Shown here: piece by piece, positions 3,655 through 16,601 of the stretch
How positions within the stretch are numbered: position 1 is the stretch's first letter
Layout of the letters: every line of letters begins with the position of its first letter
DNA from: Porticoccaceae bacterium
GTDB lineage: Bacteria; Pseudomonadota; Gammaproteobacteria; Pseudomonadales; Porticoccaceae
Direction: 5' to 3'
DNA: 38,244 nt
Assembly (NCBI GenBank): GCA_018654575.1
Contig: JABILI010000065.1
Span: 1-38,244 of the forward strand
Notes under the pieces: model-generated
Told to the model about the DNA's origin: nothing
What the model saw: the letters and a program-made list of their open reading frames with translations, nothing else
Database searches by the model: none
Made by a program: the position numbers and the translations under genes

Positions 3655-4077
3655 CTAGCTACTGGTTAAGCCGCAGGATATCAGCTGGCCGCTCACATCG
3701 GAGATAATAGCTGTAACGTCTGCATGCGTGTACGCAGTCGCGGGAACCTGACCCCACACTGGCTTTGGCCAGCATACGTCGGTACGGAACCTGCACACAT
3801 GGTGTATGTGCAGTTGAGGCACCATATTGCCAATGGCTGCAATATTGAGCTTGTCGGGACTAAACAGACTGACGAGCGCCTTTGATAAGCAATCAGATTC
3901 TTTCATTAACTGATGGCGATCATCAGCTGATAGCTGATACAACTCCTCGATTCCATGTCGTTTTGGCACTAATATCAGCCAAGGATAGTTTGCATCTTTA
4001 CTGAGTAGCAACAAGGATAGTGGTAATTCCCCTATTTTTACCGTATCTGACTCAAGTGTTGGGTGTAATTCAAACAT
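3655..4077 (-). CDS. HIT-family protein
   Basis: This 140-residue HIT-fold protein belongs to a superfamily of small nucleotide hydrolases and transferases. The N-terminal part has YPWLILVPKRHG (about 32-43), the strand and loop that lead into the active site. The motif NMVPQLHIHHVCRF near residues 84-97 is the histidine-triad region. The canonical first His of HxHxH is Gln here (QLHIHH), as I recall for this gammaproteobacterial subfamily, so its hydrolase activity should not be assumed. The gene stands alone, converging on the HU-like remnant and divergent from proS. Confidence 0.85.
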   Translation of the reverse strand: MFELHPTLESDTVKIGELPLSLLLLSKDANYPWLILVPKRHGIEELYQLSADDRHQLMKESDCLSKALVSLFSPDKLNIAAIGNMVPQLHIHHVCRFRTDVCWPKPVWGQVPATAYTHADVTAIISDVSGQLISCGLTSS

Positions 4078-4078
4078 T

Positions 4079-4106
4079 TTGCATCCTTAAACAGCTTTAC
4101 TGTATA
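4079..4106 (+). promoter_or_regulatory. Candidate sigma70 promoter for proS
   Basis: TTGCAT (4079-4084) and TGTATA (4101-4106) are separated by 16 bp, placing a start near 4113 and a leader of about 55 bases before the preferred proS start. The element lies in the short divergent gap between the HIT gene and proS. Both hexamers deviate from consensus. Confidence 0.35.
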
Positions 4107-4168
4107 CCGCGACGATCCTGCATCGTAAAATGGTATCATTAGTCACCAGTCAATATTTAAGAGAAACC

Positions 4169-5899
4169 ATGCGCGCCAGTCAATATTTAATAACAACTAA
4201 GAAAGATTCCCCCGCTGATGCTGAAGTCATTAGCCATCAGCTAATGCTCCGTGCCGGCATGATTCGTAAAGTAGCATCTGGCCTCTACTCGTGGATGCCG
4301 CTCGGCTTGAGAGTATTTAGAAAAGTTGAGGCTATCGTCCGGCAAGAAATGGACCGATCCGGAGCCCTGGAAATGCTGATGCCAGTAGTGCAGCCCGCTG
4401 ACCTATGGGCTGAATCTGGCCGCTGGGGCCAATTTGGACCAGAATTGCTGCGAATCAAAGATCGACATGACCGTGAGTTTTGCCTTGGCCCTACTCACGA
4501 AGAAGTGATCACCGATATTATCAGAAACGAGATTAGCAGTTACAAACAATTACCGGCCAATTTCTATCAAATACAAACTAAGTTTCGTGATGAGAGACGG
4601 CCTCGTTTTGGCGTGATGCGCACCCGGGAATTTTGTATGAAAGATGCCTACTCTTTCCATAGCAATGCGACGTCTCTGCAAGAAACATACGATGTAATGC
4701 ATAAAACCTATACCACTATCTTCGAGCGTGCTGGTCTTACTTTCCGCGCGGTACTAGCAGATACCGGCAGCATTGGTGGCAGCCATTCCCATGAGTTTCA
4801 CGTTCTTGCTGAGTCCGGAGAAGATGCGATTGTATTTTCAAGTGAGGGTGACTATGCCGCTAATATAGAGAAAGCAGAAGCACTAGCCCCAGCGGGAGTT
4901 GCTCCTAGCCCACAATTAGACCTGACTGAAATCCCAACACCTGGGGTCCATACCATTGCTGACCTTTGTCAGCTCTTAGAGGTTGAGCCCGAGAAGACGC
5001 TGAAATCTCTTATCATAAGTACCGAAGATGACATGGGTAAGACCCAGCTCTACGGGCTAATGTTACGTGGCGACCACGAGCTTAATGAAGTTAAAGCTCA
5101 AGGGGTTTTAGGGCTTAAGACACCGATTAGTTTCGCTACGGAAGAACAAATCAAGAAGGCTCTCAAATGCTCTCCAGGGTCGATCGGGCCCGTCAATCTC
5201 GCCCTGCCTTTAGTGGTAGACCCAAGTGCCGCAGTACTCAGTGACTTCGCCTGCGGCGCAAATCGCGATGGTCACCATTTTACCGGGGCCAACTGGAAGC
5301 GAGATACTGCAGACTATGTCGTTGCTGACATTCGTAATGTTGTAGCCGGCGATGTAAGCCCCGATGGCAAGGGGGTTTTAGAAATAAAGCGCGGCATCGA
5401 AGTAGGTCACATATTCCAGCTAGGCACAAAATATAGCGAAGCCATGAAGGCGACTGTATTAGATGAGAACGGTAAAGAACAGTATATGAGTATGGGCTGC
5501 TACGGTATTGGCGTTAGCCGAATAGTAGCCGCTGCTATTGAGCAAAATAACGATGAAAACGGCATAATCTGGCCCGAATCTATAGCCCCATTCCAGATTG
5601 CTATTGTGCCGATCAATATGCATAAATCTAATACTGTCAAAGAAGCCTGCGAGACTCTCTATAACCAATTAACGGAATTAGGTTACGAGGTTCTCTTTAT
5701 GGACGAAGTTAAGGCTAGGCTGGGCGGTATGCTTGCCAACGTCGAACTCATTGGCATTCCCCATAGAATCGTTGTAGGTGATAGAGGCCTAGAGGCTGGG
5801 TCAGTAGAATACCGGCATCGTAGAGCCACTGAGAATCAACATATTGCCCTGAAAGATACGGTTAACTTTCTCACGGAGCACGCATTTAAAGACAGCTAA
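4169..5899 (+). CDS. proS: Prolyl-tRNA synthetase (bacterial type, with editing domain)
   Basis: This class II synthetase attaches proline to tRNA-Pro. I chose the ATG at 4169 rather than the in-frame ATG at 4130, because [20 protein letters not shown] matches the usual ProS N-terminus and gives 576 residues, close to the 572 of E. coli. The longer version adds 13 residues from a local duplication. Motif 2 appears as [17 protein letters not shown], motif 3 as the [14 protein letters not shown] segment near residue 445, and the bacterial editing insertion occupies about 220-400. A purine-rich AAGAGA precedes the start. The 20-base gap to the DUF1445 gene suggests read-through into the 5-oxoproline operon. 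Confidence 0.97.
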
Positions 5900-5919
5900 A
5901 TGCAAAAGGTCCAAATAAT

Positions 5920-6705
5920 ATGCCTAACAATCTCACCCCAGTAAATCTTCGTAGGTTGATCCGCAATAACGATCATATCGGCGCGACATCGGGATTCTGC
6001 AAGGGGTACGTTCAGTGCAATATGGTGATATTACCTGAGGCGTGGGCTGAGGACTTTACGCTCTTTTGTCGAGCCAACCCAAAACCATGCCCACTTATTG
6101 CTGTGTCCAAGGTCGGCGACCCACATCTTGCCGAATTAGGTCAAGACCTTGATGTTCGCACCGATATATCGAGTTACAGATTATTCGAAAATGGCCAGTT
6201 AACGCGTGAAATCTCTGATATTTCAGCTTTATGGAACGACAATTTAGTTGCTTTCTTAATAGGCTGTTCATTTTCCTTTGAGGACGCCCTGATTGCAGAA
6301 GGCTTAGAAGTGCGCAATGTTAGCCAAAATCGAAATGTCCCCATGTATCGAACTAACATTGACTGCACTCCCGCTGGACCCTTTAAGGGAAAAATGGTGG
6401 TTAGCATGCGCCCTTTCAACGACGAAGATACTCAGGAAGCCATACAAGTAACGGGGCGATTCCCATCGGTACACGGCGCCCCAATCCATTTTGGTGATCC
6501 GGCCGCAATAGGTATAAAAGATATTAATAGGCCTGATTATGGGGATGCGGTGACCATTAATAATAATGAACAACCTGTGTTTTGGGCCTGTGGAGTAACG
6601 CCTCAGGTTGCGCTGGAGCAAGCGAAACTGCCTTTTTGCATCACTCACAGCCCCGGCTGTATGCTCGTAACAGATCTACTTAATAGCTCTTTTGATCAGC
6701 GCTAA
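5920..6705 (+). CDS. DUF1445 / YcsI-family protein (D-glutamate cyclase N-domain homologue)
   Basis: The 261-residue protein has the YcsI/UPF0317 signatures: [16 protein letters not shown] near residues 24-39, [10 protein letters not shown] near 114-123, SMRPF near 162, and [11 protein letters not shown] near the end. Length is normal for the family. In B. subtilis, ycsI sits in the kip (pxp) operon. In mammals DUF1445 is the N-terminal domain of DGLUCY, which cyclises D-glutamate to 5-oxo-D-proline, with DUF4392 as the second domain. Here DUF4392 is fused to PxpC three genes downstream, so the two proteins may form a split D-glutamate cyclase (inference). Older annotation calls the family a putative hydro-lyase. 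It is followed by pxpA after 34 bases. Confidence 0.9.
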
Positions 6706-6739
6706 TTGAACGGGCCCAGACTTTAGTTAGGATACTCTT

Positions 6740-7471
6740 ATGTCTCTAATGTTAAATTGTGATCTAGGTGAAAGCACCCATCCTGATGTCATGGATGTCG
6801 ACGCTCTGGTTATGCCTCATATCGATCAAGCCAATATTGCTTGCGGTCTCCATGCGGGTGATGCAGAAATGATGAGAGCGACACTGCTTCTAGCCAAAGA
6901 GAATGGCGTTCGAGTTGGCGCCCACCCTAGCTATCCAGATAGAGAAGGTTTTGGACGTCGTTCAATGCCACTGCCTAGCGACGCACTGATCGCAATAGTG
7001 CAGTCGCAGATTGCAGAGTTAACCCAGATTGCAATCGAGGTAGGTATTTCAGTTTCCTATGTGAAACCTCATGGCGCGCTTTATAACGATATGATGGCGA
7101 ACGGCCATATTCGTAGTGCTGTCATGCAAGCTGTCAGCTCATCTCCCCAGCCCTTAGCATTTATGTTGCAAGCGACCCCAGATGCGGAGACTCACCGAAG
7201 AGAAGCTAAAGCTTTCGATTTAGAGGTTATCTTTGAAGCTTTTGCTGATCGTTGCTATGCCGATAATGGGTCGTTATTGAGTAGAAAGCTGCCTGGCGCC
7301 GTGCATAGCCGCGAAATGATGTTAGAACAGGTCGCTCAACTGAACGAAAGTGGCACCATCACCACCATTAGCGGCCATAGGCTATCCATTCAAGCAGATT
7401 CAGTCTGTGTTCATGGGGACAATGTAGATGGCGTGGCAGCCATAGAAGAAGTTCGCCAGTTGCTGCGATGA
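6740..7471 (+). CDS. pxpA: 5-oxoprolinase subunit A (LamB/YcsF family)
   Basis: PxpA is the LamB/YcsF subunit of the bacterial ATP-dependent 5-oxoprolinase, which opens 5-oxoproline (pyroglutamate) to glutamate together with PxpB and PxpC. The 243-residue sequence starts MSLMLNCDLGEST and shows ANIACGLHAGD, VGAHPSYPDREGFGRR and YVKPHGALYND in family order, with CVHGDN near the C-terminus. AGGA lies 9 bases before the ATG. It is followed after 10 bases by pxpB. Confidence 0.96.
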   Translation: MSLMLNCDLGESTHPDVMDVDALVMPHIDQANIACGLHAGDAEMMRATLLLAKENGVRVGAHPSYPDREGFGRRSMPLPSDALIAIVQSQIAELTQIAIEVGISVSYVKPHGALYNDMMANGHIRSAVMQAVSSSPQPLAFMLQATPDAETHRREAKAFDLEVIFEAFADRCYADNGSLLSRKLPGAVHSREMMLEQVAQLNESGTITTISGHRLSIQADSVCVHGDNVDGVAAIEEVRQLLR

Positions 7472-7481
7472 TAGGTCAACA

Positions 7482-8210
7482 ATGACAAATCAATCAATCA
7501 AGATATCGGTCGCCGGAGAAAATGCGCTTATAGTGTATTTTTCTGATCATGGTGACGCCGCAGTGGCAGCTCAGATACAAGCTTGTTCCTTGGGCATTCG
7601 TCTTGCGCTGGGCCCTAAACTCATTGATCTAGTAGCCTCTTATGCCTCCATTTTAGTCATCTACGATGACCTACTTACCGATCACTTTGCTGTATCTAAA
7701 GTCATTCGTGCCGCTGCAACTGAGACATTCAACCAATCTACTGCGACGCCCACTAATCATACTGAGAACCTCATTACTCTCCCTGTCTATTACAGCCTAG
7801 AAACGGGGCCAGACTTAGCTGCCTTAGCAGAAAACGCAGGCTTAACAACTGATCAAGTAATAGACATCCATCAATCTACGGAATATCGGGTTTATGCTAT
7901 TGGTTTTGCTCCAGGATTTGCGTATCTAGGAGAGGTTGACGAACGCATAGCGGCATCTAGGCTGGCTACCCCGAGGCTTAAAGTGCCTCGTGGAGCAGTG
8001 GCAATTGCCGATCGTCAAACGGCGGTTTATCCTGCTGAATCACCCGGCGGGTGGAACCTAATTGGCCTTTGCCCTACACCCATGTTCGACGCAAAAGCGG
8101 ACCCGATCATGCCTGTATCGACGGGCGATAGGGTTAGTTTTAAGGCCATTAGCAAACAAGATTTCATTGATCTTGGTGGCAAGCTGGATATTCTGGGAGA
8201 GCTTAAGTGA
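7482..8210 (+). CDS. pxpB: 5-oxoprolinase subunit B (KipI family)
   Basis: The 242-residue KipI-family protein has the conserved core YAIGFAPGFAYLGEVD (near 137-152), followed by TPRLKVPRGAVAIADRQTAV and the PGGWNLIG motif. KipI was first known in Bacillus as a kinase inhibitor; in most bacteria the conserved role is as the PxpB subunit of 5-oxoprolinase. Its stop codon overlaps the pxpC start as GTGA, which indicates translational coupling and fits a fixed PxpB-PxpC complex. Confidence 0.95.
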   Translation: MTNQSIKISVAGENALIVYFSDHGDAAVAAQIQACSLGIRLALGPKLIDLVASYASILVIYDDLLTDHFAVSKVIRAAATETFNQSTATPTNHTENLITLPVYYSLETGPDLAALAENAGLTTDQVIDIHQSTEYRVYAIGFAPGFAYLGEVDERIAASRLATPRLKVPRGAVAIADRQTAVYPAESPGGWNLIGLCPTPMFDAKADPIMPVSTGDRVSFKAISKQDFIDLGGKLDILGELK

Positions 8211-9979
8211 CTGGACTAAGAGTCATACAGCCAGGCGTCCATAGCTTGATTCAGGATGAGGGTCGTTTCGGTAAACATCACATAGGTCTTACAGTAGGAG
8301 GCCCCTTAGATCGTCATTCTTTTCGCTGGGCCAACAAGCTATGTTCAAACCCTATCAACACGCCCACTATTGAGGTGGCCATAGGCGGCCTTGTACTAGA
8401 ATCAATGATAGATACCTCTTTCGCGGTCACTGGCGCCATGATTGATCTTAGCATCAACAAAATCCAAGTAAATTGTTGGACGGTTCATCGAATCAAGACC
8501 GGAGATCGCATCGAGCTGGGCTACGCCAAGGTGGGTATACGTTGCTACCTAGCCGTCATCGGTGGCTTTGAGATAGAGCCAACATTTGGCAGTTGCTCCA
8601 CGGTTACCAGAGAGGCTGTGGGTGGCTTAGCGGGTGACGGTACGCCCCTTGCTAGTGGTGACCTAATATCCTGTTCTGAAACTCCATTATACGTTCCATA
8701 CTTTGTGGCGAGGGAACAACAACCCAAGCACCTAACAATAACGCCCGAATCGACTTGCTTGAGAGTAATCTTGGGGTACCAGCAAGATTACTTTACAGAG
8801 CAGCAGACAAAACAGTTTTTTCACGGGAAATACCGCATTTCAGAACGTAACGATAGAATGGGCTTTAGACTATTAGGGCCCGATATTAAGCCCTCTATTG
8901 ATGGCATTCTGTCTGAAGGTATTTGCCAGGGCGCCATTCAAGTGCCGCCTGATGGCCAACCGATAATCCTACTCAATGACCGCCAAACCATTGGTGGATA
9001 CCCTAAAATAGGCTCTGTACTGTCTTTGGACCTCGACAAATTAGCGCAACTTGGTCCAGAAGCCGTTGTTTGCTTCGAAGAGGTGAGTATCGAGCAGGCA
9101 CATAATCTAAAACATCTTGCTGCGATTAATTTTCAACAAGGTAAGGCTACTGTAAACCTAGATGCTCTGTCCAAAGCAATAGAAGATCTGTTAGTCGCTA
9201 GTAACCCTAGGGGCATGAAGACAGTGTCATCAGCCATCCAAGACGGATCATACTTAAGAGCTGCTCAACTGATCCATAATGCCCAAGGTAAGATACTAAT
9301 CGGCACGGGTTTCCCTGTAAATGGTAGCTTTGAAACCGATGGTCCACTTGGTGCAATCGCACTGTATAAGGCGATAAAGGCTATTGGTGGCTCTCCAGTC
9401 TTAGTCTGTGAGGCTCCATTATGTACTTTGTTAAACACAGACTTTCAGACTCTAGAGATAAAAATAAATGAAGACGGTCAAAATCAAGCCCAGAAAGCTC
9501 TCGATCAGTACCAACCTGCCCTAGTTATTTCAATCGAACGCCCAGGGCAATCTAATGATGGTCGATACTACAATATGCGTGGTATAGATATTTCAGAGTA
9601 CTGTGCCGATTATGATAGCTTTTTGTCACTAGCCACCTGCCCCACTATCGCCATAGGTGATGGAGGTAACGAAATCGGCATGGGAAACATTACGGAAGCC
9701 TTAGAACAACTTGATATTCACGCTGCAACAACTGAATGTGACGAGCTGCTTCTTGCAGACATCTCCAACTGGGCAGCCCATGGCTTAGCCGCGCTACTAT
9801 CTACAATCAGCGGTCAAGACATACTCTCTGACTGGAATAACAAGTCAGTGCTGCAGATGCTTTCAGACGGTGGCAGCGTCGATGGTGTGACCGGTGAAAA
9901 TACCTTAACAGAGGACGGTGTCGATTCAGATGTAAGTCAACGGCTGGTAACCGAACTAAGAAAGATAGCAGGGTTTTAA
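8207..9979 (+). CDS. pxpC: 5-oxoprolinase subunit C fused to a DUF4392 domain
   Basis: A 590-residue two-domain protein starting at GTG. Residues 1 to about 310 are a complete PxpC/KipA biotin-dependent-carboxylase-like domain: IQPGVHSLIQDEGRFG near 7-22, GGPLDRHSFRWAN at 31-43, RNDRMGFRL near 214-222, and PPDGQPIILLNDRQTIGGYP near 247-266. From about 318 to 586 follows DUF4392, the C-terminal domain of mammalian D-glutamate cyclase, with ETDGPLGA (376-383), ERPG (444-447), DGRYYNMRG (451-459) and GDGGNEIGMG (484-493). KipA proteins are usually about 300-340 residues and DUF4392 is usually separate or fused to DUF1445. The frame is continuous with no sign of a sequencing join. The fusion suggests that cyclisation of D-Glu and ring opening of 5-oxoproline are coupled (inference). 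Confidence 0.93.
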   Translation: MTGLRVIQPGVHSLIQDEGRFGKHHIGLTVGGPLDRHSFRWANKLCSNPINTPTIEVAIGGLVLESMIDTSFAVTGAMIDLSINKIQVNCWTVHRIKTGDRIELGYAKVGIRCYLAVIGGFEIEPTFGSCSTVTREAVGGLAGDGTPLASGDLISCSETPLYVPYFVAREQQPKHLTITPESTCLRVILGYQQDYFTEQQTKQFFHGKYRISERNDRMGFRLLGPDIKPSIDGILSEGICQGAIQVPPDGQPIILLNDRQTIGGYPKIGSVLSLDLDKLAQLGPEAVVCFEEVSIEQAHNLKHLAAINFQQGKATVNLDALSKAIEDLLVASNPRGMKTVSSAIQDGSYLRAAQLIHNAQGKILIGTGFPVNGSFETDGPLGAIALYKAIKAIGGSPVLVCEAPLCTLLNTDFQTLEIKINEDGQNQAQKALDQYQPALVISIERPGQSNDGRYYNMRGIDISEYCADYDSFLSLATCPTIAIGDGGNEIGMGNITEALEQLDIHAATTECDELLLADISNWAAHGLAALLSTISGQDILSDWNNKSVLQMLSDGGSVDGVTGENTLTEDGVDSDVSQRLVTELRKIAGF

Positions 9980-10072
9980 CTGCCTGCCAGATATTTTCAC
10001 TTGAAATGCTACTTGTATGAGAAATTTTCCTGCAATCTAACCTGATTAGCGTAATTTAAAAATCAATTGTCT

Positions 10073-10101
10073 TTGTCTAAAACTGCACTAACTGGTACTA
10101 T
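10073..10101 (+). promoter_or_regulatory. Candidate extended -10 promoter for dat-alr
   Basis: TTGTCT (10073-10078), a 17-bp spacer and TACTAT (10096-10101) preceded by TGG, an extended -10 element. It lies in the 190-base gap after pxpC and would start transcription near 10108, about 65 bases before the transaminase start. It implies that dat and alr can be expressed independently of the pxp operon. Confidence 0.5.
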
Positions 10102-10173
10102 TTTTGGTCGGCAATAAGTAAAGCCGCCGATTAACCCAGCGCTCTTTTAGTGCATATAAAAGTAAGGTCGCCC

Positions 10174-11031
10174 ATGAGTATTGTTTTTTTAAATGGTTCA
10201 TATATGCCCATGTCAGAGGCAAAGATTTCGCCACTAGACCGTGGTTTTCTTTTCGGTGATAGCATTTATGAAGTTATCCCCTCCTATCAAGGCCGCTTGT
10301 TAGGCTTTGGCCCTCATATTGATCGTATGAACGATGGGTTCAAAGGCATTGGCTTGAACATGGACTGGTCCGATCAGCAATGGAAAATGCTTTGTGAAGA
10401 CCTTGCTGATAAAAACGGTAACAGTAACTTAGGCATTTACTTACAGGTTAGTCGAGGAGCTGATACTAAGCGATACCATGCTTTCCCCGCAGAGGTTGAG
10501 CCAACCGTCTTTGGGTTCACCTTTGAAATTCCCGAGCCTCCCGTGGCAGACAAAGCGGTTGCTAAAGGCTACAAGGTATCAATTGCTGAAGACCTCCGAT
10601 GGCAGCGTTGCCATATCAAATCGACTGCATTACTAGGCAATGTTCTGCACTTTCAGCAAGGATACGATCAAGGCCATGATGAAACCTTATTGTTTAACGC
10701 GAACAATGAGCTCACTGAGGCTAGCTCATGCAATGCCTTTATCGTTAAAAATGGGACACTTATTACACCTCCTCTGGATAATCAGCTTTTACCCGGCATT
10801 ACGCGCCACATGCTACTCGATATCCTGCGTAAAGATGGCTCAATCCCAGTTGAAGAGCGAATCGTTAGCAAGCAAGAGGTGCTTAACGCCGATGAAGTCT
10901 GGATTAGCAGCTCCACTAAAGAGATCGGTGCGGTTATTGAAGTGGATGGAAGCCCCGTTGGTGACGGCAAGGTCGGCGATATTTGGCTGGCTGCTCAACG
11001 GCTTTTTTCCGCCCATAAGTTTAATTACTAG
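10174..11031 (+). CDS. dat: D-amino acid (D-alanine) transaminase, PLP fold type IV
   Basis: The 285-residue fold-type IV aminotransferase probably interconverts D-Ala plus 2-oxoglutarate with pyruvate plus D-Glu. The segment DLRWQRCHIKSTALLGN is close to the DIRWLRCDIKS signature of bacterial D-amino acid transaminases rather than to branched-chain enzymes; Lys149 in it is the PLP-binding lysine. SPLDRGFLFGDSIYEVIP, EASSCNAF and a GITR-type phosphate-binding segment are also present. The ATG at 10174 is preferred over the GTG at 10150 because AAGG lies 6 bases upstream and the family N-terminus begins there. alr starts 14 bases downstream, giving a D-Ala/D-Glu gene pair. Confidence 0.88.
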   Translation: MSIVFLNGSYMPMSEAKISPLDRGFLFGDSIYEVIPSYQGRLLGFGPHIDRMNDGFKGIGLNMDWSDQQWKMLCEDLADKNGNSNLGIYLQVSRGADTKRYHAFPAEVEPTVFGFTFEIPEPPVADKAVAKGYKVSIAEDLRWQRCHIKSTALLGNVLHFQQGYDQGHDETLLFNANNELTEASSCNAFIVKNGTLITPPLDNQLLPGITRHMLLDILRKDGSIPVEERIVSKQEVLNADEVWISSSTKEIGAVIEVDGSPVGDGKVGDIWLAAQRLFSAHKFNY

Positions 11032-11045
11032 CGGTACACACTATC

Positions 11046-12146
11046 ATGTCAAGACCTACTCTCGCTGTTATTGACCTAAAAGCTCTAAGGGCTAATTTTG
11101 CCTTAGCACAATCTTTAACACCAGGCGCAAGCACTATTCCTATGGTCAAGGCTAACGCGTACGGGCATGGCATGATAGAGGTAAGCCGTGCGTTGTCAGA
11201 ATCTGCTCCAGCATTTGGTGTTGCGTCAATTGATGAAGCTTTGGTACTCCGAGAGGCAGGCATTAAGCAGCCTATCTTGTTACTTGAAGGTACGTTCTCT
11301 TGTGATGAAGTAGGGGTCGCCGCTGATAATAACTTCATACTGATGGTTGAGAACTCAGCGCAAAAGGATGCCATCCTAAATGCGTCTATCTCTCGCCCAG
11401 TGAGTGTGTGGCTCGGCATTGACACGGGCATGCATAGACTCGGATTTGAGCCTCATGAGGCCACCCAAGCCTATCTTGCGCTTAGTAATACCGACAATGT
11501 CGCTAAACCTATTGTGGCGGCCTCTCACTTCGCTTGTGCAGATGATTTGGGTAGCAGCGCAACAGAAAGGCAAGTAGTGATTTTTGATCAATGTACCGCA
11601 TCCATGGCCGATGCGACTAACGATGTTATTGCTAAATCTCTGGGTAACTCTGCAGCAATTCTAGCTTGGCCGAAAACTCATCGTGACTGGCAAAGACCTG
11701 GCTATATGCTCTATGGAAACTCACCTTTTTCAGAGGGGCAAGAGAACGCCAACAAACTTCAACCCGTTATGTCTTTGCAGTCAGCTGTGATTTCTATTCG
11801 TCGTATTGCTTCTGGCGAATCAGTCGGCTACACCGCTAACTGGACGGCAGATCGAAACTCAATCATCGCCACGATTACCGTTGGTTACGGTGATGGTTAT
11901 CCACGTCAGGCGCCCAATGGAACACCCGTACTGGTTAATGGAGTGCGTTGCCCTCTGGTGGGACGAGTTTCGATGGATATGATTACCGTCGATGTCACCG
12001 ACCTAGATCTTGTATCTATCGGAGACAAAGTCATTCTTTGGGGGCCTGAACTTCCGGTTAATGAGATTGCTGAACACTGCAACACGATCGGTTATGAACT
12101 GTTGGCACGCATACCTTCTCGGGTGCCGCGGATATATAGTAACTAG
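11046..12146 (+). CDS. alr: Alanine racemase
   Basis: This 366-residue PLP fold-type III enzyme interconverts L- and D-alanine. Lys35 in MVKANAYGHG is the cofactor lysine, and the second catalytic residue is the Tyr of VGYTANW at about 262. Other conserved segments are GIDTGMHRLGF, ASHFACAD, RPGYMLYG, TITVGYGDGYPR and GRVSMDMITVDVTD. Length is normal. It is the last gene of the plus-strand D-amino acid block. Its TAG overlaps the TAG of the convergent Lrp-type regulator in the palindrome CTAG, leaving no room for a terminator. Confidence 0.96.
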   Translation: MSRPTLAVIDLKALRANFALAQSLTPGASTIPMVKANAYGHGMIEVSRALSESAPAFGVASIDEALVLREAGIKQPILLLEGTFSCDEVGVAADNNFILMVENSAQKDAILNASISRPVSVWLGIDTGMHRLGFEPHEATQAYLALSNTDNVAKPIVAASHFACADDLGSSATERQVVIFDQCTASMADATNDVIAKSLGNSAAILAWPKTHRDWQRPGYMLYGNSPFSEGQENANKLQPVMSLQSAVISIRRIASGESVGYTANWTADRNSIIATITVGYGDGYPRQAPNGTPVLVNGVRCPLVGRVSMDMITVDVTDLDLVSIGDKVILWGPELPVNEIAEHCNTIGYELLARIPSRVPRIYSN

Positions 12147-12619
12147 CGGTTAATCTGGATAGCAGTTTCGGACTTAACATCTTGAATAACAACGTAGGTA
12201 TGGGTCTGGCTTATATCGCTGATTGAGGCAAGTTTCTCGCCTAAAAACCGTTGATAATGTTGCATATCAGCCACTCGTATCTTAATCAAATAATCAAAGC
12301 CTCCGGCCACCATCTGGCACTCTTGCACCTCTGGAAGATCAATCATCTGTTGATTGAAACGCTTAAAAGCATCAGTGGTTGAACTTACCAACTGAATCTC
12401 GATATAAGCACAGAGACTAGAATTAACCTTCACCGGATCAATTAGAGCCACATAATCGGTTATAAACCCTTCTTTCTCCAATCTTTTTACTCTCTCCAGA
12501 CAGGGCGTTGGTGTCAAATTGACTTGACGTGAAAGTTCTACATTAGAAATTCGCCCGTTACCTTGCAGTACCGTTAGAATTCGTTTATCTATCAGGTCAA
12601 GTCCCGTTATATTTTTCAT
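12143..12619 (-). CDS. Lrp/AsnC-family transcriptional regulator
   Basis: The 158-residue protein has an N-terminal helix-turn-helix (about 6-60: LDLIDKRILTVLQGNGRISN through LTPTPCLERVKRLEKEGFI) and a C-terminal RAM ligand-binding domain (about 70-150, with AGGFDYLIKIRVADM). The ATG at 12619 is chosen over one 29 codons upstream because AGAGGTGG lies just before it and the product then matches normal Lrp length. It is divergent from putA, the arrangement of PutR-type Lrp regulators that activate proline dehydrogenase when proline is present (known for such pairs; inferred here). It could also sense alanine and act on alr/dat. Confidence 0.92.
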   Translation of the reverse strand: MKNITGLDLIDKRILTVLQGNGRISNVELSRQVNLTPTPCLERVKRLEKEGFITDYVALIDPVKVNSSLCAYIEIQLVSSTTDAFKRFNQQMIDLPEVQECQMVAGGFDYLIKIRVADMQHYQRFLGEKLASISDISQTHTYVVIQDVKSETAIQINR

Positions 12620-12737
12620 TGCCACCTCTTTGTTTAATGCCGCATAAGCTTCATGACTATTACCGTCGCTAAATGATGTCTTTTTAACCAAACCTCTAAA
12701 GCACAATAATCTATAAAAATGAATTTAGCGATATTAA

Positions 12738-12769
12738 ATATGGCAAAAATAACATTTTTGGAGCCATAT
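12738..12769. promoter_or_regulatory. Nested inverted repeat in the lrp-putA divergent region
   Basis: ATATGGC (12738-12744) pairs with GCCATAT (12763-12769), and inside it AAAAAT (12745-12750) pairs with ATTTTT (12754-12759) around AAC. A 3-base GGA bulge lies on the right side. The AT-rich, dyad-symmetric site lies between the regulator and putA and is the best candidate for the Lrp-type binding site. Confidence 0.5.
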
Positions 12770-12827
12770 TCTAAATCATTTACATCAAAATGCAGAATAA
12801 TAAATTTAACCTTGGTTAGGGCACTCA

Positions 12828-15800
12828 GTGAACCAAATTCAATTGCGACAACACATACAGAAAACCGCCCATATCGATGAACACCAAATGATGAGTCAAC
12901 TTATTCATCGCAACCCTCTATCGCAAACGGCCAGAGACGGCATTCTTAAATCTGCCCGGCAACTCGTTACCGACTGCAGGGCGAGTAAAGCTAGTGGCGG
13001 AACCCTCGATGCGTTTCTACTCCAATTTGGTCTATCTAACGGCGAAGGCGTTGCGTTAATGTGTTTAGCCGAGGCCCTATTACGCGTCCCTGATGGGCTT
13101 ACGGCAGACCGCCTAATCGCCGAAAAAATTCGATCAGGAAAGTGGAGCGATCATCGGGGTCAGTCAGACTCTTTATTCGTCAACGCATCTACGTGGGGGC
13201 TCATGTTGACGGGGCACTTAGTCAGCTTAGATACCGATATTACTCAACACCCAGATAGCTGGATAAAGCGGCTCACAGCAACCATGGGCGAACCCGCTAT
13301 TCGTGCGGCCGTGATGCAAGCAATGCGTATTATGGGAGGGCAATATGTCCTGGGTCGTACTATCGTTGAAGGTATTAGAAAAGGGCAGAAAAAAAACAAC
13401 AGTGACTCTCTATTCTCATTCGATATGCTTGGTGAAGGTGCTCGCACTAATGATGACGCTCGCAACTACTTGCGGGCCTATAGACAAGCCATTGATGAGA
13501 TCGGTGCCGCACGTCAAAATTGCAAGGGCGATCAATCAGACATTTATCAGGCAAACGGCATCTCAGTAAAGCTTTCTGCCCTTCATCCACGATACTATTT
13601 CGCTCAACACTCATTGGTGATGAATGAACTGTTACCGCGCATCAAACAACTCTGCCAACAAGCCAAAGACCACAATATTGGCCTTTCTATTGATGCAGAA
13701 GAATCATATCGTTTAGACATTTCTTTGGATATCTTTGAGGCTCTAGCCAATGACCCCGACTTAGCAGGCTGGCAAGGCCTTGGCTTTGTACTACAAGCCT
13801 ACCAAAAACGAGCGCCATACACTACACAATGGCTCATTGCCGTTGCCAAGCAAAGCAAACGACGATTAATGGTTCGTTTGGTTAAAGGCGCCTATTGGGA
13901 TGCGGAAATTAAACACGCCCAAGAGCTAGGGCTTGAAAGCTATCCTGTATTCACACGAAAATCCAACACCGACCTGTGCTATCAGCACTGCGCTGAACTA
14001 TTACTAAATGCACCACAATTAATATTCCCTCAATTTGCCACGCATAATGCCTACACAGCGTCCATGATATTGGCATTAGTAGGTGATCGTGAGTTTGAAT
14101 TTCAAAGATTACACGGCATGGCTCATAGTCTGTACCCCCAACTACAAAAACAGCATCCTGACAGACCATTTCAGGTTAGAGTCTATGCCCCTATTGGAAC
14201 CCATAAAGACTTGCTGCCTTACCTTGTTCGTCGACTGCTTGAGAATGGTGCTAACAGCTCTTTCGTTAATCGATTTCTGGATAAGCAAACACCCGTTGAA
14301 GAGCTGCTCAACGACACCCGAACAGAAGTGACAAGTACATTTCCATACCAACATAAAGAGATACCAATCCCCGGAAAGATTTTCGAAGCCGTCGGCGAAA
14401 TGCGTAAAAACGCGCGAGGTATAGACTTAGATTCTGTACATGAGACTCAGATATTGCTAAATCATGTAGAGCACTTCTCAAAGGATTTACTAGCTGCACA
14501 ATCCATTGTTAATGGCAAATGTATCGGTCATGAGCTCAAAGAGTATTTCAACCCTGCGGATCATTTACACGTTATTGGCCATTTCAGTGCAGCCAGCCAA
14601 GACGATATTTTGCACGCACTAGAATCTGCCTACTCTGCACAGCCTGACTGGAATAGCAAGGGGCCTCTTTATCGTGCAAACATCTTAGACAAAGTTGCCA
14701 ATTACATGGAGCGCGACTGTGCAGACCTGATCACTATCATCGCAAACGAAGCCGGACGAACTCTTAATAATGGTTTATCCGAAGTTCGAGAAGCGATTGA
14801 TTTTTGCCGGTACTATGCAATCCAAGCCCGTCAGTTGGACCTCGATTCATCATTAAAACTGCAAGGCCAAGGCGTGTTCTTATGCATCAGCCCATGGAAT
14901 TTCCCGCTGGCCATTTTTGTGGGCCAAATTGCCGCAGGCTTAGTCGCAGGCAACGCTGTAATCGCCAAACCCGCCATGCAAACACCTGCTGTAGCATCCT
15001 ATGCTATCAAGCTGTTTCACAGCGCTGGCGTACCTCGACAGGCATTACAGTTACTTTTAGGTGGTGGCTCCAAAATAGGCAAGCTACTGATTAAAGACCC
15101 ACGTATCGCAGGTATTGCATTCACAGGATCAACCGCGACAGCCTTAACTATTAACCGTCAGTTAGCTAGCCGCTCAGGGAGGCCCATACCCTTGATCGCC
15201 GAAACGGGCGGTCAAAACTGCATGATAGTCGATTCAACTGCTCTGCCTGAACAGGTAGTTGATGATGTTATCAGTTCTGCATTTTTAAGCGCAGGACAAC
15301 GTTGCTCTGCTCTTCGCGTTCTGTTCGTACAGCAGGATATTGCCGACCACGTGTTGGAGATGCTATCTGGCGCCATGGCCTCAATAAAAGCCGGCAACCC
15401 AAAACAGCTAGACACTGACTTAGGCCCGGTGATCGACATGGGCGCAAAGCAAACCCTTGACGCTCATATTGATCGCATGACACGCGAGGCTAGCTTAATC
15501 GCCAAGGTTGAGCTAAGCGAAGCTTGCACTAATGGTAGTTTTGTCGCACCTCATGTCTTTGAAATAGATTCACTAAATCAGCTTAGTGAAGAAGTATTCG
15601 GGCCAGTACTGCATGTCATTCGCTATGCTGCAGATAAACTTGAGGACGTCATAAAACAGATTAATGATACCGGCTATGGACTTACTTTAGGAGTTCACAG
15701 TCGTATTGAAGCTTTTGCGGACACCGTGTTTAGAAACACCATCGCGGGTAATGTTTATATCAACCGTAACATGGTCGGGGCCGTCGTTGGTGTCAATCCA

Positions 15801-16601
15801 TTTGGTGGGCGTGGGCTTTCAGGTACCGGCCCCAAAGCCGGTGGGCCCAACTATCTTTTGCGCTTCTCTTCCGTAGTGCATGAGAAAGAATTAATGCTAA
15901 ATAATGGAAGTGTCATCTTTAATCTGACCGAAAAAGCCAAAGACAAAGATATTACAGATCAGGTTTCTCGCGCATCAAAGACGATTCAGCAGTGGCAAAG
16001 CACCTCAATAGAGGAACGAATCAATATTTTATCGAGACCCCATAAATCTATTTTACTTGCTACCGAGATTGAGGCCCTTGTGCTCCAAAAGATCGACACA
16101 CCTATCGAATTGCCTGGCCCAACTGGCGAAGCCAACCAACTATCGGTTCATGGCCGTGGGATAATGCTCCTGCTGATAAGGCACCGTGATCCATTTAAAA
16201 ATGCTCTTCAACAAATCGGATGTGCATTACTCTGTGGTTGCCCCGTCATTATTGCCGCTCATGAAAGTCTAGCAATAAAGCTGACCAGCATTATAAATGC
16301 CTGCGTTAAAAAGGGCCTGCCAAAACATCTAGTCACCTTAACTAGCCTTGATGAATCAGTAGACCTTATTCGGCACCCTGATATTTCTGGAGTAATAGCC
16401 AATACTGCGCAGACTGACAGTCAATCACTGCGACAGGCTATGGCCACACGTAACGGCAGCATTATCCCTTTAATTGAATGGCCTAAAAGTAGTCAGGGGT
16501 ACCACTATCAGTGGCTATTATGGTTTTTAAGCGAGCGAACACGCACCGAAAACTTGGTTGCACGGGGAGGAAATACGCAGCTGTTTAATTTAACTGAGTA
16601 A
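12828..16601 (+). CDS. putA: Bifunctional proline dehydrogenase / P5C dehydrogenase (PutA)
   Basis: The 1257-residue PutA oxidises proline to glutamate. An alpha arm and the FAD-binding proline dehydrogenase barrel (about 80-490) carry ISVKLSALHPRY (about 244-255), RLMVRLVKGAYWD (about 345-357) and RRLLENGANSSFVNR. The NAD-dependent P5C dehydrogenase (about 560-1010) carries CISPWNFPLAIF (about 686), FTGSTATA, the ETGGQN glutamate near 792 and the catalytic Cys of GQRCSALRV near 826. A degenerate ALDH-like C-terminal domain follows. The ribbon-helix-helix DNA-binding domain of E. coli PutA is absent: the protein begins directly at the arm. It is thus bifunctional, not autoregulatory, consistent with the divergent Lrp-type gene. 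Start codon is GTG with a weak AGGG site. Confidence 0.96.
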   Translation: MNQIQLRQHIQKTAHIDEHQMMSQLIHRNPLSQTARDGILKSARQLVTDCRASKASGGTLDAFLLQFGLSNGEGVALMCLAEALLRVPDGLTADRLIAEKIRSGKWSDHRGQSDSLFVNASTWGLMLTGHLVSLDTDITQHPDSWIKRLTATMGEPAIRAAVMQAMRIMGGQYVLGRTIVEGIRKGQKKNNSDSLFSFDMLGEGARTNDDARNYLRAYRQAIDEIGAARQNCKGDQSDIYQANGISVKLSALHPRYYFAQHSLVMNELLPRIKQLCQQAKDHNIGLSIDAEESYRLDISLDIFEALANDPDLAGWQGLGFVLQAYQKRAPYTTQWLIAVAKQSKRRLMVRLVKGAYWDAEIKHAQELGLESYPVFTRKSNTDLCYQHCAELLLNAPQLIFPQFATHNAYTASMILALVGDREFEFQRLHGMAHSLYPQLQKQHPDRPFQVRVYAPIGTHKDLLPYLVRRLLENGANSSFVNRFLDKQTPVEELLNDTRTEVTSTFPYQHKEIPIPGKIFEAVGEMRKNARGIDLDSVHETQILLNHVEHFSKDLLAAQSIVNGKCIGHELKEYFNPADHLHVIGHFSAASQDDILHALESAYSAQPDWNSKGPLYRANILDKVANYMERDCADLITIIANEAGRTLNNGLSEVREAIDFCRYYAIQARQLDLDSSLKLQGQGVFLCISPWNFPLAIFVGQIAAGLVAGNAVIAKPAMQTPAVASYAIKLFHSAGVPRQALQLLLGGGSKIGKLLIKDPRIAGIAFTGSTATALTINRQLASRSGRPIPLIAETGGQNCMIVDSTALPEQVVDDVISSAFLSAGQRCSALRVLFVQQDIADHVLEMLSGAMASIKAGNPKQLDTDLGPVIDMGAKQTLDAHIDRMTREASLIAKVELSEACTNGSFVAPHVFEIDSLNQLSEEVFGPVLHVIRYAADKLEDVIKQINDTGYGLTLGVHSRIEAFADTVFRNTIAGNVYINRNMVGAVVGVNPFGGRGLSGTGPKAGGPNYLLRFSSVVHEKELMLNNGSVIFNLTEKAKDKDITDQVSRASKTIQQWQSTSIEERINILSRPHKSILLATEIEALVLQKIDTPIELPGPTGEANQLSVHGRGIMLLLIRHRDPFKNALQQIGCALLCGCPVIIAAHESLAIKLTSIINACVKKGLPKHLVTLTSLDESVDLIRHPDISGVIANTAQTDSQSLRQAMATRNGSIIPLIEWPKSSQGYHYQWLLWFLSERTRTENLVARGGNTQLFNLTE

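What the first reader, a model, noticed from the sequence alone, without database searches (positions are those of the whole stretch)
8207..9979. PxpC fused to the DUF4392 half of D-glutamate cyclase, with the DUF1445 half encoded three genes upstream
Seen: one uninterrupted frame encodes a full KipA/PxpC domain (about 1-310) and a full DUF4392 domain (about 318-586, with ETDGPLGA, ERPG and GDGGNEIGMG), and DUF1445 is the first gene of the same run (5920-6705). Known: mammalian DGLUCY is DUF1445 plus DUF4392 and converts D-Glu to 5-oxo-D-proline; PxpABC hydrolyses 5-oxoproline to glutamate with ATP. Inference: a D-Glu cyclase is split over two polypeptides and physically tethered to 5-oxoprolinase, so the cyclic intermediate could be channelled. 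An open question is stereochemistry: the cyclase should make the D form, while PxpABC is known on the L form, so either this PxpABC accepts 5-oxo-D-proline or an unseen racemisation occurs.
Basis: partly seen in the sequence, partly recalled or inferred. Interest (0 to 1): 0.85.

Follow-up and report, generated by a model that had tools for sequence, protein, structure and literature searches.

The report
D-glutamate cyclase half fused to oxoprolinase
In a group of ocean bacteria, one half of an enzyme thought to close D-glutamate into a ring is joined in a single protein to part of an enzyme that opens such rings, inside a gene cluster that also appears to make D-glutamate, so a poorly understood branch of cell-wall amino-acid metabolism becomes testable.

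Summary
8207-9979 is one open frame: a PxpC-type domain (residues 26-291) plus DUF4392 (329-585, all six metal ligands kept); DUF1445 is at 5920-6705. The genome belongs to the SAR92/HTCC2207 clade (Porticoccaceae). The fusion is real and old: 12 of 12 scorable members of one subclade carry it, and a second fusion is seen in one other assembly. In an order-wide draw, 3 of 54 clear DUF4392 hits have a fusion-length frame, all in this genus.
DUF4392 tracks DUF1445 (24 of 28 genomes; in the other 4 a contig edge cuts the cassette) but not PxpA; the pair is missing at least twice independently while PxpABC-Dat-Alr stayed, and stands as a bare pair elsewhere. This supports a two-subunit D-glutamate cyclase. 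Channelling into PxpABC is unproven: without inversion at the ring stage, cyclase plus a D-accepting PxpABC is a futile cycle. Glutamate racemase is missing genus-wide, but that is not specific to the cassette (13 of 50 carriers have it, versus 83 of 274 background genomes).

The parts
5920..6705 (+). DUF1445 protein (putative hydro-lyase), first half of the presumed two-subunit D-glutamate cyclase, 261 aa
   Evidence: PF07286 1.8e-68; NF003969 405 bits over cut-off 324; PDB relatives 2pif, 3db9
6740..7471 (+). PxpA (LamB/YcsF), 5-oxoprolinase subunit A
   Evidence: PF03746 4e-80; NF003816 303 bits over 213
7482..8210 (+). PxpB (KipI), 5-oxoprolinase subunit B
   Evidence: PF02682 2.5e-64; TIGR00370 149.4 bits over 145.55
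8207..9979 (+). PxpC-DUF4392 fusion protein, 590 aa
   Evidence: single open frame; two Pfam domains; same joined frame in relatives
8216..9139 (+). PxpC-type domain (urea amidolyase-related, residues 4-311)
   Evidence: TIGR00724 267 bits over 230.2, but NF045499 PxpC equivalog only 196 of 500; Foldseek 5dud
9140..9190 (+). linker, residues 312-328, with a helix starting at 318 in the model; relaxed selection over residues 301-330
9191..9961 (+). DUF4392 domain (residues 329-585) with metal ligands E376, D378, E444, D485, E489, D570, equivalent to TON_0340 E59, D61, E115, D157, E161, D246
   Evidence: residues of TON_0340 from PMC5132392
10150..11031 (+). D-amino-acid transaminase (Dat) type, canonical carboxylate trap Y40, R108, H110
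   Evidence: PF01063; nearest solved structures are D-amino-acid aminotransferases 3daa/1daa; triad described in PMC10003956 (passages)
11046..12146 (+). alanine racemase (Alr)
   Evidence: TIGR00492 361 bits over 168
4130..5899 (+). prolyl-tRNA synthetase (ProS), 20 bases upstream on the same strand; usual neighbour in the genus, probably not a functional part

Best explanation
The locus is a D-glutamate handling cassette. Dat, fed by Alr, interconverts D-Ala + 2-oxoglutarate and D-Glu + pyruvate and is the likely source of wall D-Glu in a lineage without a recognisable glutamate racemase. DUF1445 and DUF4392 together form a two-subunit, Mn/Mg-dependent D-glutamate cyclase (the animal enzyme DGLUCY as two polypeptides) that takes surplus D-Glu out as 5-oxo-D-proline and may run backwards. 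PxpABC opens 5-oxoproline at the expense of ATP. In this SAR92 subclade the DUF4392 subunit became covalently joined to PxpC, so the cyclase assembles on the oxoprolinase core, with DUF1445 recruited as a separate subunit. Shown from sequence: gene content, domain and fold identity, intact metal ligands, purifying selection, the old fusion, the joint presence and absence of the two cyclase halves, linkage to Dat/Alr. Inferred: activities, the physical complex, direction of flux. On stereochemistry I think it most likely that PxpABC works on the L form (its known substrate) while the cyclase works on the D pool, the cassette thus covering both hands of the Glu/5-oxoproline pair, rather than one substrate being channelled through both.
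For: Domains and folds; six metal ligands invariant in 26 homologues (ligands from PMC5132392). DUF1445 is found in 24 of the 28 genomes that have DUF4392; in the other 4 a contig edge cuts the cassette (DUF4392 at a contig start in G006, G013, G016; G001's contig ends in PxpB). DUF4392 does not track PxpA (Fisher p 0.12 in all 56, 1.0 in the genus). Both halves are absent from 8 genomes in two clades that keep PxpA-PxpB-PxpC-Dat-Alr in place; G031 is a probable third case (DUF1445 missing between the SLT gene and PxpA, neither half found in an 85% complete genome). DUF1445-DUF4392 pair without Pxp or Dat in the stretches fetched as L200 and L201. Dat on the same strand in 71 of 80 loci; a Dat-type protein of at least 226 bits in 50 of 50 cassette genomes searched. 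No glutamate racemase over the cut-off in any of 35 genomes of the genus. In the sister clade a lytic transglycosylase gene sits between ProS and the cassette (5 of 5 tested by Pfam; similar ORFs recognised by eye in 13 of 14 loci read), pointing to peptidoglycan turnover. Fusion present in 12 of 12 scorable members of its clade.
Against: No activity is known for any protein here. TON_0340 (DUF4392) was reported as a weak Mn-dependent phosphatase, not a cyclase (PMC5132392), and which half of DGLUCY is catalytic is not established in what I read. Both halves also occur alone: DUF1445 without DUF4392 in G047 and G053, and Bacillus subtilis rings for DUF1445 but not for DUF4392; DUF4392 without DUF1445 in the fetched stretches of several plasmids and genomes. 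In the four genomes with DUF4392 only, the search was genome-wide, and G016 is 99% complete, so the contig edge need not be the whole reason. Lack of glutamate racemase is not special to cassette carriers (13 of 50 versus 83 of 274 have it, Fisher p 0.62). Dat scores below the cut-offs of its NCBIfam models (237 of 320; 233 of 277). The co-occurrence test is not corrected for relatedness.
Confidence: 0.5

Rival explanations
1. Neutral fusion. PxpC and DUF4392 are adjacent, overlapping, translationally coupled genes; loss of a stop/start joined them without functional consequence. The two enzymes work independently.
For: In 14 of 14 scored unfused relatives a start codon of the DUF4392 frame lies before the PxpC stop; six show the ATGA 4-base overlap, so fusion is an easy step. 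Linker under relaxed selection. Most carriers manage without fusion (3 fusion-length frames among 54 hits over the cut-off).
Against: Present in 12 of 12 scorable members of a deep clade and apparently arisen twice, though the second case rests on one assembly.
Confidence: 0.22
2. ATP-driven inversion. D-Glu is cyclised to 5-oxo-D-proline, inverted at the ring stage (spontaneously or by one of the cassette proteins), and opened by PxpABC to L-Glu: a one-way D-to-L glutamate route without glutamate racemase, for which tethering makes sense.
For: It is the reading in which cyclase and oxoprolinase in series give a net reaction; the genus lacks a recognisable glutamate racemase; tether to PxpC; conserved cassette.
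Against: No inversion activity is known for any cassette protein; two clades keep PxpABC-Dat-Alr without the cyclase; PxpB and PxpC are encoded away from the cassette in Pseudoalteromonas lipolytica and G037; racemase absence is not enriched among carriers.
Confidence: 0.15
3. DUF1445 and DUF4392 are not a cyclase here but accessory subunits of PxpABC, for example DUF4392 acting as a phosphatase or hydrolase on a phosphorylated ring intermediate, or giving it specificity for another lactam.
For: TON_0340 has Mn-dependent phosphatase activity (PMC5132392); the PxpC domain is far below the PxpC equivalog cut-off (196 of 500 bits), so the substrate of this PxpABC subfamily is open.
Against: The pair exists without a Pxp gene in the fetched stretch (L200, L201) and is missing without loss of PxpABC.
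Confidence: 0.1
4. Sequencing or assembly artefact.
For: The home genome is a 103-contig assembly.
Against: Same joined frame in 11 further assemblies of the clade from named and unnamed sources.
Confidence: 0.01

Closest known systems
Mammalian D-glutamate cyclase DGLUCY / C14orf159 / 9030617O03Rik (PMC5339696, parts 1-2 of 4 read; PMC5132392, parts 1-2 of 4 and passages read)
   Same: The same two domains, DUF1445 and DUF4392; substrate D-glutamate fits the Dat/Alr context
   Different: There one polypeptide with no oxoprolinase part; here two polypeptides, DUF4392 joined to PxpC
Split bacterial homologues of human GLUCM (D-glutamate cyclase) counted in gut bacteria (PMC11580864, table passage only)
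   Same: Already in print: 0 full-length and 6 split homologues in gut bacteria, so the split as such is not new
   Different: The passage seen names no operon, no Pxp link and no fusion to PxpC
Prokaryotic ATP-dependent 5-oxoprolinase PxpABC (LamB/YcsF, KipI, KipA)
   Same: All three subunits in order A-B-C; many residues invariant across 25 homologues (not checked against published catalytic residues)
   Different: PxpC carries an extra domain; its PxpC part is below the NCBIfam equivalog cut-off; D-amino-acid genes in the cassette
TON_0340 of Thermococcus onnurineus (DUF4392, PDB 4fc5, 5gl4)
   Same: Fold and six acidic metal ligands
   Different: Free-standing domain reported as a weak Mn-dependent phosphatase
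D-amino-acid transaminase (PDB 3daa/1daa)
   Same: Nearest solved relatives of the Dat product; Tyr/Arg/His carboxylate trap conserved
   Different: K35 of the P-pocket aligns with Pro44; below NCBIfam cut-offs

Membership tests
D-glutamate cyclase (DGLUCY type) | DUF1445 domain present | tested here: met
   PF07286 1.8e-68, 5920-6705
D-glutamate cyclase (DGLUCY type) | DUF4392 domain with the metal site | tested here: met
   PF14336 4.5e-69; six ligands conserved
D-glutamate cyclase (DGLUCY type) | both domains in one polypeptide | tested here: not met
   separate genes with PxpA and PxpB between them
D-glutamate cyclase (DGLUCY type) | D-Glu to 5-oxo-D-proline activity | not testable with these tools
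   no assay
5-oxoprolinase PxpABC | PxpA, PxpB and PxpC subunits encoded together | tested here: met
5-oxoprolinase PxpABC | PxpC passes the NCBIfam equivalog NF045499 | tested here: not met
   196.4 bits against cut-off 500; passes the TIGR00724 domain model; an unfused relative scores 215.8
5-oxoprolinase PxpABC | ATP-dependent hydrolysis of 5-oxo-L-proline | not testable with these tools
   no assay
D-amino-acid transaminase | canonical Tyr/Arg/His carboxylate trap and catalytic Lys | tested here: met
   Y40, R108, H110 and the lysine of IKS aligned to 3daa (that this lysine is the catalytic one is recalled)
D-amino-acid transaminase | NCBIfam subfamily/equivalog cut-off | tested here: not met
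   237.4 of 320 (NF005209), 233.1 of 277.45 (TIGR01121)
DUF4392 / TON_0340 family | fold | tested here: met
   Foldseek 4fc5_C E 7.4e-21

The most novel reading that the evidence does not exclude
The fused complex is a glutamate stereo-inverter: D-Glu is cyclised, the ring is epimerised, and PxpABC re-opens it to L-Glu with ATP, giving marine bacteria without glutamate racemase an irreversible way to recover D-Glu from Dat and from peptidoglycan as L-Glu.
Probability: 0.13. Interest if true: 0.85.

Novelty: new variant of a known kind. Interest (0 to 1): 0.55.

Why it matters
The bacterial role of the two DGLUCY domains is unsettled: DUF4392 was published as a phosphatase, DUF1445 is annotated 'putative hydro-lyase'. 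The cassette and the fusion tie both to 5-oxoprolinase and to D-amino-acid enzymes and give four natural states (fused, separate, bare pair, pair missing) that can be compared. It makes the fate of 5-oxo-D-proline in bacteria, and the source and disposal of D-Glu in SAR92-type marine bacteria, directly testable. Among the listings seen of searches I saw no paper on a PxpC-DUF4392 protein or on a DUF1445-Pxp-DUF4392-Dat cassette; the library holds open-access papers only, and searches listed only part of their matches. Split bacterial GLUCM homologues as such are in print (PMC11580864).

Tried and rejected
MurI replacement as the driving force: absence of glutamate racemase looked striking in the genus (0 of 35 over the cut-off), but cassette genomes have it about as often as background genomes (13 of 50; 83 of 274; p 0.62). 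Dropped as evidence specific to the cassette. The 50 include HTCC2207, of the same genus; the 274 include the window's own genome and were not screened for the cassette.

PxpBC-less cassettes as proof that PxpA alone partners the cyclase: Pseudoalteromonas and G037 lack PxpBC in the cassette, but a PxpB/PxpC pair is encoded elsewhere in Pseudoalteromonas lipolytica and in G037. Rejected.

G032 as a reversal to separate genes: the apparent break is a run of N in the PxpC part; DUF4392 is in frame with the PxpC C-terminus.

Promoter and terminator scan of 4000-13000 gave nothing beyond chance (10 promoter-like sites against 16.3 expected; 8 terminators against 7.9).

Regulators: a cluster of 16 neighbour ORFs, most of them inserted between DUF4392 and Dat in non-SAR92 loci, looks LysR-type (one member tested); not followed further. 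PMC13274462 (PxpTABC of Corynebacterium) was searched for D-form terms and held none.
Full report
OBSERVATION. The window is contig C96 of a 2.42-Mb, 97.6% complete genome. The 590-aa frame at 8207-9979 carries a PxpC-type domain (CT_A_B, 26-291) and a DUF4392 domain (PF14336, 329-585); DUF1445 (PF07286) is at 5920-6705, PxpA at 6740-7471, PxpB at 7482-8210. Dat (10150-11031) and Alr (11046-12146) follow, then an Lrp-type regulator on the other strand and PutA. An AlphaFold2 model from 24 aligned sequences has mean pLDDT 85.2 and pTM 0.79. Foldseek matches one half to E. coli YbgJK and the other to TON_0340.

ORGANISM AND REALITY OF THE FUSION. Named relatives with the same locus are Porticoccaceae UBA4026, SAR92 bacterium MED-G29, HTCC2207 and others, so the genome is of the SAR92/HTCC2207 clade. 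Of 56 genomes (own plus relatives) 28 have DUF4392. Of these, the junction to PxpC could be scored in 24: 10 are fused (9, plus G032, whose apparent break is a run of N) and 14 are separate. G006, G013 and G016 end at contig edges and G037 has no PxpC beside DUF4392. Three further named SAR92 assemblies are fused: L106, L107 and L122. On a tree of nine concatenated proteins 12 of these 13 fused genomes lie in one clade (support 100; its only unscored member is G006). The thirteenth, G004 (contig of the same length as L112, so the same assembly), groups with the unfused G019 and the unscored G013 (support 100). Two fusion events are thus the simplest reading, but the second rests on one assembly; the start codon seen in unfused sisters is not present at its junction. 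In a phylum-wide draw 10 of 398 genomes had DUF4392. In an order-wide draw of 390 genomes 55 had a match, 54 over the cut-off, and three (G000, G003, G004) had an open frame over 400 aa; fusions cut by a contig edge would be missed there. In 14 of 14 unfused genomes the DUF4392 frame holds a start codon before the PxpC stop, six with a 4-base ATGA overlap, so joining them is mechanically easy. Both domains are under purifying selection in 5 of 6 pairs (dN/dS 0.07-0.14; 0.31-0.38 in one very close pair, dS about 0.04); the linker is relaxed (0.27-0.81).

WIDER CASSETTE. The 80 best DUF4392 loci of a scan of named genomes (biased to close relatives; 525 relatives were found and 80 kept) show DUF1445-PxpA-PxpB-PxpC-DUF4392-Dat-Alr in 27 and the same without Alr in another 27. 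In all, 67 of 80 have DUF1445, 74 have PxpC and 71 have Dat on the same strand. Of the 13 without DUF1445, nine have DUF4392 within 0.8 kb of the start of the locus; the other four (L121, L134, L178, L181) are real absences from the stretch. So the fusion is a late detail of an old gammaproteobacterial cassette, and Dat is nearly as regular a member as the Pxp genes. A Pseudoalteromonas plasmid carries DUF1445-PxpA-DUF4392 and a class IV aminotransferase. A Dat-type protein (226 bits or more) is in 50 of 50 cassette genomes examined.

DUF1445 AND DUF4392 AS A UNIT. Over 56 genomes DUF4392 and DUF1445 are both present in 24, both absent in 26, DUF4392 alone in 4, DUF1445 alone in 2. In the 4, a contig edge cuts the cassette, but the search was genome-wide and G016 is 99% complete, so this is not proof that DUF1445 is there. 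PxpA does not follow DUF4392. Eight genomes in two separate clades (G005, G008, G010, G014, G034; and G017, G018, G033) have PxpA-PxpB-PxpC-Dat-Alr at the same place with both cyclase genes missing; the outgroups on the tree have both, so loss is the simpler reading. G031 is a probable third case: DUF1445 is missing from its place, the contig ends in PxpA, and neither half was found in the 85% complete genome. L200 and L201 carry DUF1445-DUF4392 as a bare pair in the stretch fetched. PMC5132392 had noted that the animal protein joins the two and suggested sequentially linked functions (passage); PMC5339696 reported D-Glu to 5-oxo-D-proline for the animal protein (parts 1-2 of 4); a survey of gut bacteria counts six split homologues of the human protein and no full-length one (PMC11580864, table passage). 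I conclude that the two halves work as one enzyme here, most likely the cyclase. The six metal ligands of TON_0340 map to E376, D378, E444, D485, E489 and D570 and are invariant in 26 homologues.

D-GLUTAMATE CONTEXT. TIGR00067 (glutamate racemase) gives no hit over its cut-off in any of 35 genomes of the genus (two weak partial hits, G007 and G019), while a Dat-type protein of 190 bits or more is found in 32 of 35 (the misses are G017, where Dat lies in two frames, and the incomplete G030 and G031). The window's Dat keeps the Tyr/Arg/His carboxylate trap (Y40, R108, H110) described for the canonical enzyme. Dat with Alr is therefore the plausible D-Glu source. The control weakens any stronger claim: 13 of 50 cassette genomes have glutamate racemase, against 83 of 274 in a class-wide draw. 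In the sister clade a lytic transglycosylase (SLT) gene lies between ProS and the cassette: Pfam-confirmed in 5 of 5 tested, and recognised by eye in 13 of 14 loci read, two of them shortened or broken, not in L032. This again points to peptidoglycan.

MECHANISM AND STEREOCHEMISTRY. Equilibrium between glutamate and 5-oxoproline favours the ring, and PxpABC reverses it with ATP (recalled). If cyclase and PxpABC used the same hand, their sum would only burn ATP. I therefore prefer two pools: cyclase on D-Glu/5-oxo-D-proline, PxpABC on 5-oxo-L-proline, Dat and Alr linking D-Glu to D-Ala and 2-oxoglutarate. The covalent join would then serve co-assembly or fixed stoichiometry. The inversion reading is bolder, not excluded, and the one that would matter most.

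LIMITS. No activity, interaction or expression was measured. Co-occurrence statistics are not phylogenetically corrected. The 80-locus survey is a best-match sample. PxpC and Dat fall below strict NCBIfam cut-offs, so their names are by best relative. Literature statements rest on the open-access library, several listings being partial; I did not read the original PxpABC paper or a later DGLUCY enzymology paper, and what I say of them is recalled.

Noticed in passing
   Followed up: partly
   Followed up: partly
L090 10316-10960, L084 10675-11271, L085 5872-6486, L096 2619-3227, L098 5922-6527: Lytic transglycosylase (SLT) gene between ProS and the cassette in the sister SAR92 clade; absent from the window, where ProS and DUF1445 are 20 bases apart.
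   Followed up: yes
L115 4009-4521, L117 3818-4339, L174 4004-4525: A tRNA_edit gene upstream of the cassette in three non-SAR92 loci, where SAR92 genomes have ProS, which itself holds a tRNA_edit domain.
   Followed up: partly
L206 7770-11349 and L205 6760-8897: Pairs of DUF4392 genes on Bradyrhizobium and Roseinatronobacter plasmids among amino-acid ABC or tripartite tricarboxylate transporters, without an annotated DUF1445 in the stretch.
   Followed up: no
L204 6849-9403: Threonine/serine dehydratase, DUF4392 and RidA in a row near the bhc genes on an Agrobacterium plasmid.
   Followed up: no
L048 7973-8791 (G011) and L085 9018-9882 (G017): DUF4392 with an internal TAG in G011 and Dat spread over two frames in G017; pseudogenes or assembly errors.
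   Followed up: no
for example L120 8924-9820, L131 8947-9837, L182 8873-9760: A LysR-type regulator gene (one tested, L120) inserted between DUF4392 and Dat in a number of non-SAR92 loci.
   Followed up: partly
window 12143-16601: Lrp-type regulator divergent from PutA (1257 aa) next to the cassette, as in much of the genus, but not at this place in the 1.2-1.4 Mb genomes G005, G008, G010, G014 and G034.
   Followed up: partly
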